From Chitinophagaceae bacterium (GTDB taxonomy: Bacteria; Bacteroidota; Bacteroidia; Chitinophagales; Chitinophagaceae), in the NCBI GenBank assembly GCA_014879545.1, contig JACSRV010000140.1:1-39347 (forward strand): DNA of 39,347 nucleotides, given 5' to 3'. The translations under genes were made by a program, and so were the position numbers. Of the stretch, positions 33,990 through 39,347 are shown in pieces (position 1 is the first letter of the stretch; each line of letters starts with the position of its first letter). The notes beneath the pieces are model-generated. The model was not told the origin of the DNA, ran no database searches, and worked only from the letters and a program-made list of their open reading frames with translations.

Positions 33990-35379
33990 GATTTCTTTCC
34001 TGGCCATTGCGTCGGTATTATTTGTAAGCAGTTGTAAGATAAAGGACAGAACATATCTGGCGTCAGATGCGGTTGTGCCCGCTACTTTCTCGGGCCGTTC
34101 CGATTCAGCATCTATGGCAGCACTTTCGTACGATAAGTTTTTTAGTGATCGCCAATTGGTTGCACTCCTGGACACTGCCCTGCAAAACAATGCCGATGTG
34201 CGGATAGCTTATGAACGTGTAGAAGCCGCTGCTGCAGGTCTGTTATCGGCCCGTGGTGCGCTTCTCCCGTCTTTTAACGTGCAGATGACAGGAGGTTCTA
34301 CCCGTTTTGGTAACTATACCATGGACGGTATGGGCAACGCCACTACACCGGGTGTTCCTTTCCCCATTATCAACGATTATTTCCCCGGTGTTAGCAGCAG
34401 TTGGGAGGCAGATGTGTGGGGTAAGTTGAAGAACAAGAAGCGCGCGTCCCGCATGCGTTACTTTGCCACCAAAGCCGGCGCCGATCTCGTGAAGACGCGA
34501 CTCATCTCGGAAGTGGCGTACCGTTATTACAACCTCTGTGCGCTCGACGAAGAGTTGTCTATTATCGATACCAATATCCGCCTTCAGACGCGTGCTTTGG
34601 AGATAGTGAAGCTGCAGAAGGAAGCCGGCCGGGCTACAGAACTGGCAGTGAAACAATGCGAGGCGCAGCTGGCGCGAACTCGCGGTATGGAGTATCGTGT
34701 TAAAACGGACATACTAACCGCGGAGAACGAACTCAACTTTTTGTTGGGCCGCTACTCGGTGCCGGTGAAGCGCAGTGGCATAAAGTTGGAGCAGGCGGAT
34801 AGGATCACCGGCATAGGTGTGCCGGCTCAGCTGCTGCAACGGCGGCCCGATGTGGTGCAGGCAGAGATGGAGCTTGCGGCATCCAATGCCGATGTAGCCG
34901 CTGCGCGGGCTGCCTTCTTCCCTGCACTTACCATCTCAGCAACAGCCGGTTTTAATGCCTATCATACTTCCGTCCTGTTCGATCCCGTTTCTGCAGCCTA
35001 TGCTGCTATGGGCGGACTGGTGGCTCCTGTGTTCAACAAAAACCTGATAAAGGCGGGCTACAATGCTGCAAAGGCCGGAAACAGAGAGGCATTTGCTCAG
35101 TATGGCAAGACAGTTATGAATGCAGTGTACGAGGTATCCACCAATGTTGGCCGAATAGCCAATCTCAAAGCGCAGTATGCGCAGAACGTAACTGCGGCAG
35201 CGGCACTTGACGAAGCCGTTGCTATATCCGGAGACCTGTTTATTGGTGGTTATGCCAACTATCTTGAGATCATCACCGCTCAGCGAAACGCTATAGAGGC
35301 CGACCTGGAAGTAGTTCAAAGCAAGAAGAATATCATGATTGGTGTTGTAGATCTTTACCGCGCTCTCGGCGGACGATAG
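33973..35379 (+). CDS. TolC-family (NodT-type) outer-membrane efflux lipoprotein
   Basis: Lipobox LFVSSCKI; GVSSSWEADVWGKLKNKKRASR; QLLQRRPDVVQAEMELAASNADVAAARAAFFPALTISATAGF; 17-nt overlap with permease gene. Confidence 0.93.
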   Translation: MITKTKISFLAIASVLFVSSCKIKDRTYLASDAVVPATFSGRSDSASMAALSYDKFFSDRQLVALLDTALQNNADVRIAYERVEAAAAGLLSARGALLPSFNVQMTGGSTRFGNYTMDGMGNATTPGVPFPIINDYFPGVSSSWEADVWGKLKNKKRASRMRYFATKAGADLVKTRLISEVAYRYYNLCALDEELSIIDTNIRLQTRALEIVKLQKEAGRATELAVKQCEAQLARTRGMEYRVKTDILTAENELNFLLGRYSVPVKRSGIKLEQADRITGIGVPAQLLQRRPDVVQAEMELAASNADVAAARAAFFPALTISATAGFNAYHTSVLFDPVSAAYAAMGGLVAPVFNKNLIKAGYNAAKAGNREAFAQYGKTVMNAVYEVSTNVGRIANLKAQYAQNVTAAAALDEAVAISGDLFIGGYANYLEIITAQRNAIEADLEVVQSKKNIMIGVVDLYRALGGR

Positions 35380-35389
35380 AACAAAAGAA

Positions 35390-35423
35390 AGAAGCCTTCG
35401 ATATCTCGAAGGCTTCTCTTTCT
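35390..35423 (+). terminator. Terminator hairpin after the RND operon
   Basis: AGAAGCCTTCGA-TATC-TCGAAGGCTTCT, perfect stem followed by CTTTCT. Confidence 0.8.
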
Positions 35424-35555
35424 GTGGGAGCACACGTGCCATAGGTATATATTCGTAATTCATCGTAAAACGATGTGAATATTTGCCAGTGCGAGTTTGA
35501 AAAGGACAGTCACATATGTTCATGCCTTACTATGTTGATTGGTGCTTGTGACATT

Positions 35556-35574
35556 TGCCGACTATCTGCCGACT
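35556..35574. repeat. Short direct repeat TGCCGACT-ATC-TGCCGACT at edge of accessory module
   Basis: Perfect 8-bp repeat, 3-nt spacer, read directly. Confidence 0.75.
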
Positions 35575-35620
35575 GAGTCAAACTTTAGATTCAAAATTTT
35601 TCTTCGATAAGACGATTCTT

Positions 35621-36847
35621 TTAGCTCTTACTCATAATGGCTCTGATGTCATCATTTACCGGATTAGTGTCCTTTGTTAAAACATCGTCATGAAGATCTC
35701 TAAATAATTTAGAGTAAGGATGATTGTTGAAATTCTTTTCATCAAAGGAAGCTCCCCCAGCTTCCCACTCATACCATTTTTTATAATTATCAGTCGAATG
35801 GGCCAACCCCATTCTAGTTAAAAAGCCGTTCAGGGAAGATCGAGACGATATTAATTCATAAACCTTGTCAACAAAATGCGAAGCATTCTTACGGACATGG
35901 GAACGATTATATTTTGTTCTCAACTTAAAAACGTTGATGTTTCCAAACTTGCTAGCTTCATTAATTTTCTTACATTTCCCTATAAGCTGCCGATATTCCG
36001 TAGAACCATAAACGGGCTTAATATTCAAGTGTATCTCCGCTATTTCTGATCCAATTTTACCAAGTATAGGTTCAAACACCATTGTTTTGGAAAAGCCTTT
36101 GATGTAAGGATTTAAATGAAACTTATCGTCAAAATTCGTCCCTCCTTTGTTAATTGTACTATTGCATGTGTTGTCTCCAGGCACTAAGTTAAATGCTGAA
36201 TAACACAGCAGTGGATAGGAAGCCTTATCAAAAAAATGATCTAAATAATGAATGGTAGCAGGGGTTCCATGTTCCGTTTTGCTATAATCAGCTTCGCCTA
36301 TATTACAATATGGGCAATACAGCACAAGGTTCTCAACACGGAAGTGTGTCTTTATTTTATTTGAAACATCCTTAAAAAGGTCGTAGTTAAAGCCTAGCTT
36401 AATTATTGTGCGGTCATCTACGCTATCTACTTTATAATTGGATAAAAGCTTTTTGTTTAACTGTTTTAATTGATCGGGAAGGCAAATCAGCAAGTCCTTG
36501 AGGTTAGCGCCTTTTTTTTGCGTTAAAAAAGTCATTAAATCGAATAATCCTTTGAGATTAATTTTGAGTAGATTATTTGGACTTTTCACATAGTTCGTCA
36601 CTGTAGTGACATAGTTGTAAGTATCAAAGTCACTTTCAGGAAGATTCCATCCTTCCACTGTATTGATAATCTTTCTTGTAATATGTTTGTACCGCAGGTA
36701 TCCTATGTCGGCTGTCGAAATTCCGACACCATTCAAATGCTTTAATGAAACAAGAAGTATATTCACCCTTGCCAAGGCAACATTAGCAACTCGTTTTAAA
36801 TATTTTTTTCTAAAAGTGGGAAGGTCATCGATTTGTATTCTAATCAT
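35621..36847 (-). CDS. HNH endonuclease-like protein (candidate PtuB-like component of a Septu-like defense module)
   Basis: C178PYC181 ... HYLDHFFDKASYPLLCYSAFNLVPGDNTCNSTINKG: CxxC + DH + N + CN arrangement of HNH nucleases; 8-nt overlap (ATGATTAG) with upstream ATPase gene. Confidence 0.75.
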   Translation of the reverse strand: MIRIQIDDLPTFRKKYLKRVANVALARVNILLVSLKHLNGVGISTADIGYLRYKHITRKIINTVEGWNLPESDFDTYNYVTTVTNYVKSPNNLLKINLKGLFDLMTFLTQKKGANLKDLLICLPDQLKQLNKKLLSNYKVDSVDDRTIIKLGFNYDLFKDVSNKIKTHFRVENLVLYCPYCNIGEADYSKTEHGTPATIHYLDHFFDKASYPLLCYSAFNLVPGDNTCNSTINKGGTNFDDKFHLNPYIKGFSKTMVFEPILGKIGSEIAEIHLNIKPVYGSTEYRQLIGKCKKINEASKFGNINVFKLRTKYNRSHVRKNASHFVDKVYELISSRSSLNGFLTRMGLAHSTDNYKKWYEWEAGGASFDEKNFNNHPYSKLFRDLHDDVLTKDTNPVNDDIRAIMSKS

Positions 36848-39047
36848 GGCGACTTCTCAGTTGTTTAAAACTTGAACGTAAAAAAGAGTCTCCAATCATT
36901 CCAATTAGTTTTTCATCATTACTCGACAGGGGCTTTTTCGATTTTATTTTATCAATCATTCGGTTCAGTTGATCTTCTGCGAATTTTCCCATTAAAGTGC
37001 CTTTAAGGAAAAAACTATCAGCAAGCAACTCATGGATATTTGCTGCAAACGTCTGAACAGTTACCGCTGCGGGACGAGATTTGCCCGTTTTCTTGTTTAT
37101 CTCCAGTCTCATTATGTTTTCACCTGGAATGTCCGACAAAATAAATGGTGAGTGTGTCAAAAATAGAATATTAACTGCATCAATTCTGTCATTACTGCCC
37201 AAGTGTAATCGAGTGAACGCCCGCAGCAAATCTGTAATAAATCTCCGTTGATACTCTGGATGAAAATAAAGCTCGATCTCATCATATACTATATTCACAG
37301 CGTGATATTTCAATCTACCGGCAACGCTAAAGTGAGCAGATTGGAGATTGTTAATGTGATAAATTACCGATTGAATCGTATGGATTAATTGTTGTTCGCC
37401 TGAACTTAAAGAGCTGAACTGAGAAATCGAACCTGCATTATTCGACAACTTGAAATCCACTTCAAAAATAGATGGGGGCAGGAACTTCATTATATCAGAT
37501 CCACGAGGATTATGCATCCAAGTCATTAATTCAGGGAGAGAGAATATTATCTCAGTTTTTTTATTCCCTGTTTCTTGTCGACTATCTAAGAAAAATGGCT
37601 CATTGGGCTTCGCTACAATTAAATATTTTAAAAAATATACTGCCTGCTTCAGCTTATACGTGATATGACTTTCATCCACTTTTAGAGCCTTAAAGAACTT
37701 CTCATTCTCAACAAATGGCGTGCTTTCGCTAAATTGATAACCAATCTCGAATCCTGGGTAACGTTCGGCTATGAACTCAATTTTTTGGACAATGTAATTT
37801 AGAATAGTTTCTTTCAATGGGAAGGATTCGGTCAGTATGTAAGTCAAATCCTGCGGACCAACGTAATCATTTAGAAAAGTGGTCAGTAAGTTCACGTTCC
37901 TCGGACTTCCAGCAATCCCAGAAGGCGTTTTCTTAAATAATTTTGGTAGATTATTGATTTTTTTTGTGTTGAGGGTAAAGACAACTTCATGAATATACTG
38001 ATGGTCTGTAATAAAGACTTTTCCATCCTGATCTTTTTTGTATAAGTTTTCAATCAGTACATTGGAAAGAAGTCGATATTTAGCAAAACCGTTTTCTGAG
38101 TTAATGTTGAAATTCCCTTCGTTACGCATTGGATTGATAACCACAGGTGTTTGATAGCCATCGTTTTTATGAAAGAGAGAATTTATCCAACCGCCAAAAT
38201 ATTTTGCATTTAAGGAATAGTGCGAGTAGTTAACCGCTATTGTATAAAAAAAGTATTTAGCTAAAGTTGATGGTTCAATTTCTACATTCTGTATTTTACT
38301 GACAGCAGGCGGACCGTCACTTTGAGATTTTTGAGACGGAACAATAGAGAGCTTCGTTCCCACATCAGGAGAAACAATCAATTTGTAACAGGTATTTGAT
38401 AACTCGTAGTAGATTTCTGCTTTTAACCCATTACGCATCTCATTAATTTCAGCAATCTTATTTGGGATTTTTTTAGGCTCACGCTCTAATGTATGCTTTT
38501 GCAATGACAAGTCGTCTTCTTCATTTTTGAATTGCTCTATGGCCTTCTCTATCTCTTCGAAACTATATTCCATCGTCTTATTAATGCGTTGAGCTTCGAA
38601 CTCCTTGGCAAATTTCTTCTTCTTGACAGCTAATTGCGACAAACGACTTTTTACTTCTAACAGATCCTTTTTCAAGTCCACCTTTAAATCTTCTAAACTT
38701 GTTAGGTTTGGTTTCAAAATCTCATGGTTTATTGAAAACATATAGATTGTTGCAAATAACAATTCTACGATGGAGCTCTTACCGGAACCATTTTTTCCTG
38801 CGATAGCTGAAATATTTACAGCTATCGTTTGGTTATCGGCCGATTGAACCGAATATAAGTTTTCGGGAACACTGTGCTCAACGGTGATGAAATCAACATT
38901 GCTATTCCCATCGATTTCTTCAAATTCGCTGTTGTTAAACTTGTACGAACTATAAAACCTATATATCTGTCCGGCTGTTAGGTTTTTAAGATAGTTTTTA
39001 TGACAGCCAAGAAGCGGTCTAATTCCAATAAGCCTAAAATCATTCAT
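36840..39047 (-). CDS. AAA/ABC-type ATPase with coiled-coil insertion (candidate PtuA-like component)
   Basis: Walker A ISAIAGKNGSGKSSIVELLF; signature FSSLSSGEQQLIHTIQ; Walker B VNIVYDEIELYFHPEYQRRF; H-loop NILFLTHSPFILSD; C-terminal LIGMIGDSFLRSSF. Confidence 0.88.
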   Translation of the reverse strand: MNDFRLIGIRPLLGCHKNYLKNLTAGQIYRFYSSYKFNNSEFEEIDGNSNVDFITVEHSVPENLYSVQSADNQTIAVNISAIAGKNGSGKSSIVELLFATIYMFSINHEILKPNLTSLEDLKVDLKKDLLEVKSRLSQLAVKKKKFAKEFEAQRINKTMEYSFEEIEKAIEQFKNEEDDLSLQKHTLEREPKKIPNKIAEINEMRNGLKAEIYYELSNTCYKLIVSPDVGTKLSIVPSQKSQSDGPPAVSKIQNVEIEPSTLAKYFFYTIAVNYSHYSLNAKYFGGWINSLFHKNDGYQTPVVINPMRNEGNFNINSENGFAKYRLLSNVLIENLYKKDQDGKVFITDHQYIHEVVFTLNTKKINNLPKLFKKTPSGIAGSPRNVNLLTTFLNDYVGPQDLTYILTESFPLKETILNYIVQKIEFIAERYPGFEIGYQFSESTPFVENEKFFKALKVDESHITYKLKQAVYFLKYLIVAKPNEPFFLDSRQETGNKKTEIIFSLPELMTWMHNPRGSDIMKFLPPSIFEVDFKLSNNAGSISQFSSLSSGEQQLIHTIQSVIYHINNLQSAHFSVAGRLKYHAVNIVYDEIELYFHPEYQRRFITDLLRAFTRLHLGSNDRIDAVNILFLTHSPFILSDIPGENIMRLEINKKTGKSRPAAVTVQTFAANIHELLADSFFLKGTLMGKFAEDQLNRMIDKIKSKKPLSSNDEKLIGMIGDSFLRSSFKQLRSRHD

Positions 39048-39185
39048 AAAATTCGATTTCTATAGTATTATGAGTTGGCCATTTAGCCACCCTACTTTCA
39101 TTGATAACCTACCTGCATTGACCGTACTTTTGCCAAAATAATATTTATCATAGAGTATTTCGAAATAAGTGTTGCCGAAGGAGCT

Positions 39186-39193
39186 CAAATATA
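39186..39193 (-). promoter_or_regulatory. Candidate -7 element TATATTTG upstream of ATPase-HNH operon
   Basis: CAAATATA on + strand; 138 nt upstream of the ATPase start at 39047. No convincing -33 element seen. Confidence 0.3.
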
Positions 39194-39306
39194 ATAGAAA
39201 ATGAATTATTTTGCGCTACGATCCTGATTGTAAAATATTTATTATCGCCCACGAGTTCTTTCAATAGGAAAGTTTGGTTTAACAAGGTTTGGGCAAAAAC
39301 ACTCAC

Positions 39307-39347
39307 ATGGAAAATGTAATTCTATCTAAAGAACAGGTAAAAAAACG
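39307..39347 (+). CDS. 5' end of a divergent CDS truncated by the window edge
   Basis: ATG at 39307 then open to end: MENVILSKEQVKK(R). Too short for family assignment. Confidence 0.4.
   Translation, partial: MENVILSKEQVKK

What the first reader, a model, noticed from the sequence alone, without database searches (positions are those of the whole stretch)
35621..39047. Septu-like (PtuA/PtuB-type) ATPase-HNH two-gene module
Seen: two minus-strand genes overlapping by 8 nt (ATGATTAG), indicating translational coupling. The first is an ABC/AAA-type ATPase with complete Walker A, LSSGE signature, Walker B and H-loop motifs. The second has an HNH core (CPYC...LDH...NLVPGDNTCN). The pair is visibly AT-richer than the conserved RND operon to its left and sits just beyond that operon's terminator. 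Established: Septu defense pairs an ATPase (PtuA) with an HNH nuclease (PtuB), and the same pair is the effector of some retrons (Ec78/Eco7 type). Inference: this is a Septu-like anti-phage system, possibly a divergent subtype. No reverse transcriptase is visible in the window.
Basis: partly seen in the sequence, partly recalled or inferred. Interest (0 to 1): 0.78.

Follow-up and report, generated by a model that had tools for sequence, protein, structure and literature searches.

The report
Septu-like ATPase–HNH defence gene pair
A horizontally acquired two-gene bacterial anti-virus module (an ATPase plus an HNH nuclease) sits at the end of this contig; it belongs to a known but apparently untested candidate family (PADLOC's PDC-M62) related to the Septu defence system, and the gene neighbours of some relatives hint that the family cuts RNA, perhaps tRNA.

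Summary
In detail: two overlapping minus-strand genes, a 735-aa ABC-type ATPase (36840-39047) and a 408-aa HNH protein (35621-36847), at 36% GC against 49% for the rest of the contig. The pair matches PADLOC's unpublished candidate system PDC-M62 (A 4.5e-46; B 3.4e-27) and canonical PtuA1/PtuB1 only weakly (2.1e-14; 5.5e-5). Profile and fold searches put the ATPase nearest PtuA of Septu and retron I-A. In 73 of 80 fetched relatives the HNH gene follows directly, mostly overlapping by 4, 8 or 14 nt; the tree mixes bacterial families, and many relatives lie in restriction or Gabija loci. The sister species has the same RND operon without the module. No reverse transcriptase was found in the host genome, so a retron is unlikely. 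Most likely it is an abortive-infection Septu-like effector whose HNH subunit cuts nucleic acid; tRNA is my preferred target. New side evidence: predicted RNA-repair genes (RlaP) lie beside relatives in 3 of 80 loci, and in another genome flank an AriAB/OLD-like ATPase. Ordinary as a member; the RlaP link is the part worth testing.

The parts
36840..39047 (-). 735-aa PtuA-like ABC ATPase (PDC-M62A) with a helical-hairpin (coiled-coil-like) insertion at about residues 115-207
   Evidence: ORF; PADLOC PDC-M62A 4.5e-46; conserved motifs; AlphaFold pLDDT 87, nearest PDB folds PtuA
35621..36847 (-). 408-aa PtuB-like HNH nuclease (PDC-M62B); HNH core at residues 178-229, N-terminal helical domain
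   Evidence: ORF; PADLOC PDC-M62B 3.4e-27; invariant C178, C181, D203, H204, N220, C228, N229; AlphaFold pLDDT 93.6
36840..36847 (-). 8-nt start/stop overlap ATGATTAG (translational coupling, inferred)
   Evidence: Sequence; overlaps of 4, 8 or 14 nt are the commonest arrangement in relatives
35388..35419 (.). Bidirectional terminator-like hairpin between the RND operon and the module
39048..39347 (-). Upstream region of the module up to the contig end; likely holds the promoter, not identified with confidence
   Evidence: One 10-of-12 promoter-like match at 39234-39205, within chance expectation

Best explanation
This is a horizontally acquired two-gene anti-phage effector module of the Septu (PtuAB) superfamily, specifically a member of PADLOC candidate family PDC-M62. 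Inferred mechanism: the ABC ATPase forms an ATP-dependent oligomer that scaffolds and holds back the HNH subunit and responds to a phage cue; on activation the HNH subunit cuts nucleic acid and the infection aborts. I think the target is more likely RNA (tRNA) than DNA. Shown here: the gene pair, intact catalytic motifs, conserved operon, defence context, mobility, relation to PtuA/PtuB. Inferred: phage defence, oligomerisation, trigger, target. The confidence given is for a Septu-like defence effector pair; for the tRNA target alone I give about 0.5.
For: PADLOC PDC-M62A/B full-length matches to both genes. Profile search: retron Ec83 ATPase 1.3e-8, Septu PtuA 2.7e-8, Ec78 PtuA; HNH profile to the retron I-A HNH protein 1.8e-4. 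48 PDB matches at E <= 0.001 for the ATPase model, all PtuA apart from AriA of PARIS. HNH gene directly downstream in 73 of 80 relatives. Relatives lie beside type I, IIG and III-like RM, Gabija and PifA-like genes, HerA and recombinases. Sister species G034 has the RND operon but not the module. Cross-family mixing in the tree; plasmid copies. tRNA target: PtuAB of retron-Eco7 and Septu EcB88 cleave tRNA-Tyr (PMC11555353, PMC13096335); the H204-N220 spacing of 16 equals H75-N91, the pair shown essential in EcB88 PtuB; RlaP genes tightly linked to relatives.
Against: No experiment on any PDC-M62 member was found. TM-scores of the ATPase to PtuA are low (0.14-0.40), and the HNH model has no significant PDB match: its best meaningful hit is a chain of the Ec78 PtuA:PtuB:RT complex, TMt 0.50, E 2.9. 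The window's own pair has no visible defence neighbour and its genome has no RlaP. E. coli ATCC25922 Septu was reported to act on DNA (cited in PMC11555353).
Confidence: 0.87

Rival explanations
1. Same module, but the HNH subunit is a DNA endonuclease that cuts phage or nicked DNA when activated, as reported for E. coli ATCC25922 Septu.
For: Literature on that Septu as cited in PMC11555353; relatives sit in DNA restriction operons with helicase and methylase.
Against: The two more recent studies on PtuAB found tRNA-Tyr cleavage; linkage of RlaP to relatives points to RNA damage.
Confidence: 0.35
2. It is the effector part of a type I-A retron whose reverse transcriptase and msr-msd lie beyond the contig end or were lost.
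For: The closest solved ATPases include retron I-A effectors; the contig ends 300 nt upstream; one relative (L127) has an RVT_1 gene about 1.8 kb upstream on the opposite strand.
Against: No RVT_1 in the host genome (87.5% complete); only one RT-like ORF near 80 relatives (motif scan); no retron RNA match.
Confidence: 0.04
3. The pair is a housekeeping DNA-repair (SMC/RecF-like) ATPase-nuclease unit rather than defence.
For: Weak SMC/RecF/Rad50 matches around the Walker A region.
Against: Sparse distribution (3 of about 35 genomes of the genus give an HNH match), low GC, transfer across families, plasmid copies and defence neighbours.
Confidence: 0.04

Closest known systems
PADLOC candidate system PDC-M62 (PDC-M62A + PDC-M62B)
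   Same: Both genes match over most of the profile length, in the same order
   Different: Little in architecture; the window's ATPase has an insertion of about 90 aa and the HNH protein an Asp-for-Cys change
Septu (PtuA1/PtuB1; PDB 8ee4, 8eea)
   Same: ATPase-HNH pair, same motifs, same H-N spacing of 16, PtuA is a top sequence-profile and fold match
   Different: Longer proteins (735/408 aa; PtuA 465 aa in 8ee4), weak PtuA1/PtuB1 profile scores, extra N-terminal helical domain in the HNH protein
Retron I-A / Ec78 (Eco7) and Ec83 PtuAB
   Same: ATPase closest by profile and fold; HNH profile matches the retron I-A HNH protein
   Different: No RT or msr-msd; NCBIfam NF041760 36 bits against a cut-off of 500
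TIGR04435 restriction system-associated AAA ATPase
   Same: Matches the C-terminal half (2.7e-17); relatives L039 and L045 sit in helicase-methylase restriction operons
   Different: 62.7 bits against a cut-off of 300; no restriction genes visible beside the window's pair
PARIS (AriA/AriB) and Gabija GajA
   Same: Related ABC-ATPase fold (AriA matches); PADLOC AriA 1.4e-10
   Different: HNH partner instead of TOPRIM nuclease

Membership tests
PDC-M62 (PADLOC) | ATPase matching PDC-M62A | tested here: met
   4.5e-46, residues 77-730, profile 52-569 of 601
PDC-M62 (PADLOC) | Adjacent HNH protein matching PDC-M62B | tested here: met
   3.4e-27, profile 26-322 of 328; 8-nt overlap
Septu (PtuAB) | ABC ATPase next to HNH nuclease with intact catalytic motifs | tested here: met
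Septu (PtuAB) | Strong match to canonical PtuA1 and PtuB1 profiles | tested here: inconclusive
   PtuA1 2.1e-14 over the C-terminal part only; PtuB1 5.5e-5; both far below PDC-M62. PMC11811056 reports PDC-M62 and Septu calls on the same proteins
Septu (PtuAB) | PtuA-type fold | tested here: met
   Foldseek top matches are all PtuA (E to 2.6e-6), but TM-scores are low
Septu (PtuAB) | Anti-phage activity; PtuA-PtuB complex | not testable with these tools
   needs experiments
Retron I-A | Reverse transcriptase and msr-msd RNA beside PtuAB | tested here: not met
   No RVT_1 in the genome (87.5% complete); no retron RNA in 35300-39347; sequence beyond 39347 unavailable
Retron I-A | NF041760 PtuA above cut-off | tested here: not met
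   36.2 bits against 500

The most novel reading that the evidence does not exclude
PDC-M62 is an RNA-cutting (tRNA) branch of the Septu superfamily, and some members carry a cognate RNA-repair nucleotidyltransferase pair (RlaP1/RlaP2) that flanks an exchangeable ABC-ATPase nuclease slot: ATPase-HNH in L081 (and, more loosely, L104), an AriAB/OLD-like ATPase in L169. RlaP would then mend or restrain self-damage.
Probability: 0.33. Interest if true: 0.6.

Novelty: new member of a known kind. Interest (0 to 1): 0.35.

Why it matters
The window's pair is one more intact member of a widespread candidate defence family for which I found no experimental test. Its relatives give two useful handles: cultured close relatives for phage assays, and RlaP-linked loci that make the open question 'does this branch cut DNA or tRNA, and is there a built-in repair arm?' directly testable.

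Tried and rejected
A retron was considered and disfavoured. tRNA genes as an integration site: none in the window or in the sister locus; direct repeats in the region are short two-copy matches, so no attachment site is claimed. A first single-sequence HNH scan of genome contigs found nothing; an alignment of the ATPase worked. No HNH relative in 50,697 phage records. The Rfam match to ctRNA_p42d at 35381-35419 (27 bits, cut-off 50) is the terminator hairpin. The Asp-for-Cys change in the HNH protein was considered as an inactivating change and rejected: it recurs in 11 of 52 sequences, in more than one clade, with all catalytic residues kept. Krishnan 2020 (ABC ATPase classification) and Li 2024 (PtuAB structure) are not held in the library, so they were not read.

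Full report
What is there. The window is the whole of contig C236 of a 250-contig genome (G000; 87.5% complete). At its right end two minus-strand genes overlap by 8 nt: a 735-aa ATPase (36840-39047) and a 408-aa HNH protein (35621-36847). The ATPase has Walker A (G84-S91), the LSSGE signature (547-551), Walker B ending in D589-E590 and an H-loop histidine (H632). The HNH protein has CPYC (178-181), D203-H204, N220 and C228-N229. These residues are invariant or nearly so in 52-56 aligned sequences. The module is 35.9% GC against 48.7% for the rest of the window.

Acquisition. The closest available genome, G034 (95% identical outer-membrane factor of the RND operon), matches the window up to base 35378, the end of that operon, and then differs. 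It has no ATPase-HNH module in the 1.65 kb available before its contig ends, gave no HNH match genome-wide (it is among the genus genomes searched), and has no match to the 5' end of the ATPase gene. In the genus only G003 and G029 besides the window's genome gave an HNH match. In a maximum-likelihood tree of 56 ATPases the window groups at full support with sequences from Pedobacter and Chryseobacterium and then Mucilaginibacter, while its own family includes a Chitinophagaceae genome (G051 and the L108 record have contigs of the same length, 21,544): the module moves between families. Plasmid copies exist in Haliscomenobacter and Bernardetia, annotated only as 'AAA family ATPase' and 'hypothetical protein'.

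Family. PADLOC profiles: PDC-M62A 4.5e-46 and PDC-M62B 3.4e-27; PtuA1 2.1e-14 and PtuB1 5.5e-5. Pfam gives AAA_21 above its cut-off for the ATPase and nothing for the HNH protein. NCBIfam's retron PtuA and TIGR04435 fall well below their cut-offs. A profile of 56 ATPases finds retron Ec83 ATPase (1.3e-8), Septu PtuA (2.7e-8) and Ec78 PtuA among solved structures; a profile of 52 HNH proteins finds the retron I-A HNH protein (1.8e-4). The AlphaFold model of the ATPase (pLDDT 87) matches PtuA of Septu and of retron I-A first, then AriA, though TM-scores are low. The HNH model (pLDDT 93.6) has no significant PDB match; its one plausible hit is a chain of the Ec78 PtuA:PtuB:RT complex (TMt 0.50, E 2.9). 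A survey of Bacillus cereus genomes reports 203 cases in which PADLOC called the same proteins both Septu and PDC-M62, and describes the PDC systems as unpublished candidates of Payne et al. 2021 (PMC11811056). So it is a PDC-M62 member within a broader Septu-like superfamily, not a canonical Septu by profile.

Conservation of the pair. An alignment-guided scan of one genome per species found 253 relatives, of which 80 were fetched. In 73 the HNH gene follows the ATPase gene directly, most often with an overlap of 4, 8 or 14 nt; of the other seven, three are explained by a broken ATPase reading frame (L068), a longer overlap (L106) and a contig end (L098). L128 has a GmrSD-type gene in the HNH position instead. 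In a sample of 348 genomes of the order, 42 matched the PDC-M62B profile at 0.001, about half of them only weakly.

Neighbourhood. Relatives are operon partners or neighbours of ResIII helicase + N6/N4 methylase (L039, L045), a type IIG-like methylase (L038), type I RM (L044), Gabija GajA with a UvrD helicase and a PifA-like gene (L041), HerA/DUF87 (L047), Mrr (L094), and recombinases or integrases (L051, L054). An RT-like ORF was seen near only one pair, L127, and the window's genome has no RVT_1.

Likely mechanism. Published work on the nearest studied systems: retron-Eco7 PtuAB and Septu EcB88 lead to cleavage of tRNA-Tyr; in EcB88 the Walker residues and PtuB H75/N91 are required and the behaviour is typical of abortive infection; Septu of ATCC25922 was reported to act on nicked DNA (PMC11555353, PMC13096335). 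The H204-N220 spacing here (16) equals H75-N91. I infer an ATPase scaffold that holds back the HNH subunit until a phage cue; none of that was tested here.

RlaP evidence. RlaP is a Pol-beta nucleotidyltransferase family predicted to restore nucleotides lost from cut RNA before ligation (PMC7824862). In L081 the order is RlaP1-ATPase-HNH-RlaP2 with gaps of 3, -32 and -4 nt; in L104 RlaP1 lies 11 nt before the ATPase and RlaP2 about 10 kb on; in L073 an RlaP pair lies one opposite-strand gene away. The L081 and L104 pairs are themselves PDC-M62 by profile. RlaP occurs in 20 of 150 genomes of the window's order and 12 of 150 of L104's family; three linked loci in 0.83 Mb of flank has a rough Poisson probability of 4e-6 to 2e-5. 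It was noticed after looking at many neighbours and the baseline is approximate, so it is suggestive only. In another genome (L169) the slot between RlaP1 and RlaP2 holds a 661-aa ATPase with AriA/AriAB/OLD-like matches; AriB of PARIS is a TOPRIM nuclease that cuts tRNA (PMC12409363, title and abstract as listed). The window's own genome has no RlaP, so this bears on the family, not directly on this copy.

Verdict. Real, intact, mobile, and ordinary in kind: a new member of a known candidate family. The nuclease's target is open; I favour RNA (about 0.5) over DNA (about 0.35).

Noticed in passing
L081:884-6325; L104:5231-9238; L073:2682-9410: Predicted RNA-repair nucleotidyltransferase genes (RlaP, PF10127) sit beside or around the ATPase-HNH pair in three relatives; in L081 the pair lies between RlaP1 and RlaP2.
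   Followed up: partly
L169:322-4118: In an unrelated genome the slot between RlaP1 and RlaP2 holds a different 661-aa ABC ATPase with AriA/AriAB/OLD-like matches, as if RlaP pairs flank an exchangeable ATPase-nuclease slot.
   Followed up: partly
L128:5992-9824: ATPase relative followed 12 nt downstream by a GmrSD_N-type gene instead of the HNH gene: a possible change of effector.
   Followed up: no
L127:1124-1990: RVT_1 reverse transcriptase on the opposite strand about 1.8 kb upstream of an ATPase-HNH pair.
   Followed up: no
L072:9265-10107; L078:9296-10138; L111:9205-10044; L122:9043-9882: A gene of about 280 aa with a C-terminal DUF4357 domain follows the HNH gene within about 25 nt in four relatives: a possible third component.
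   Followed up: no
L089, L094, L103, L105, L115, L118, L124, L127 and others (ATPase genes of 865-972 aa): A subgroup of the ATPases has an added N-terminal region of about 250-330 aa before the conserved start motif.
   Followed up: no
window 36160-36189 (HNH residues 220-229): Asp replaces the usual Cys in the second zinc-ligand motif (PGDNTCN); the change recurs in 11 of 52 sequences, in at least two clades.
   Followed up: partly
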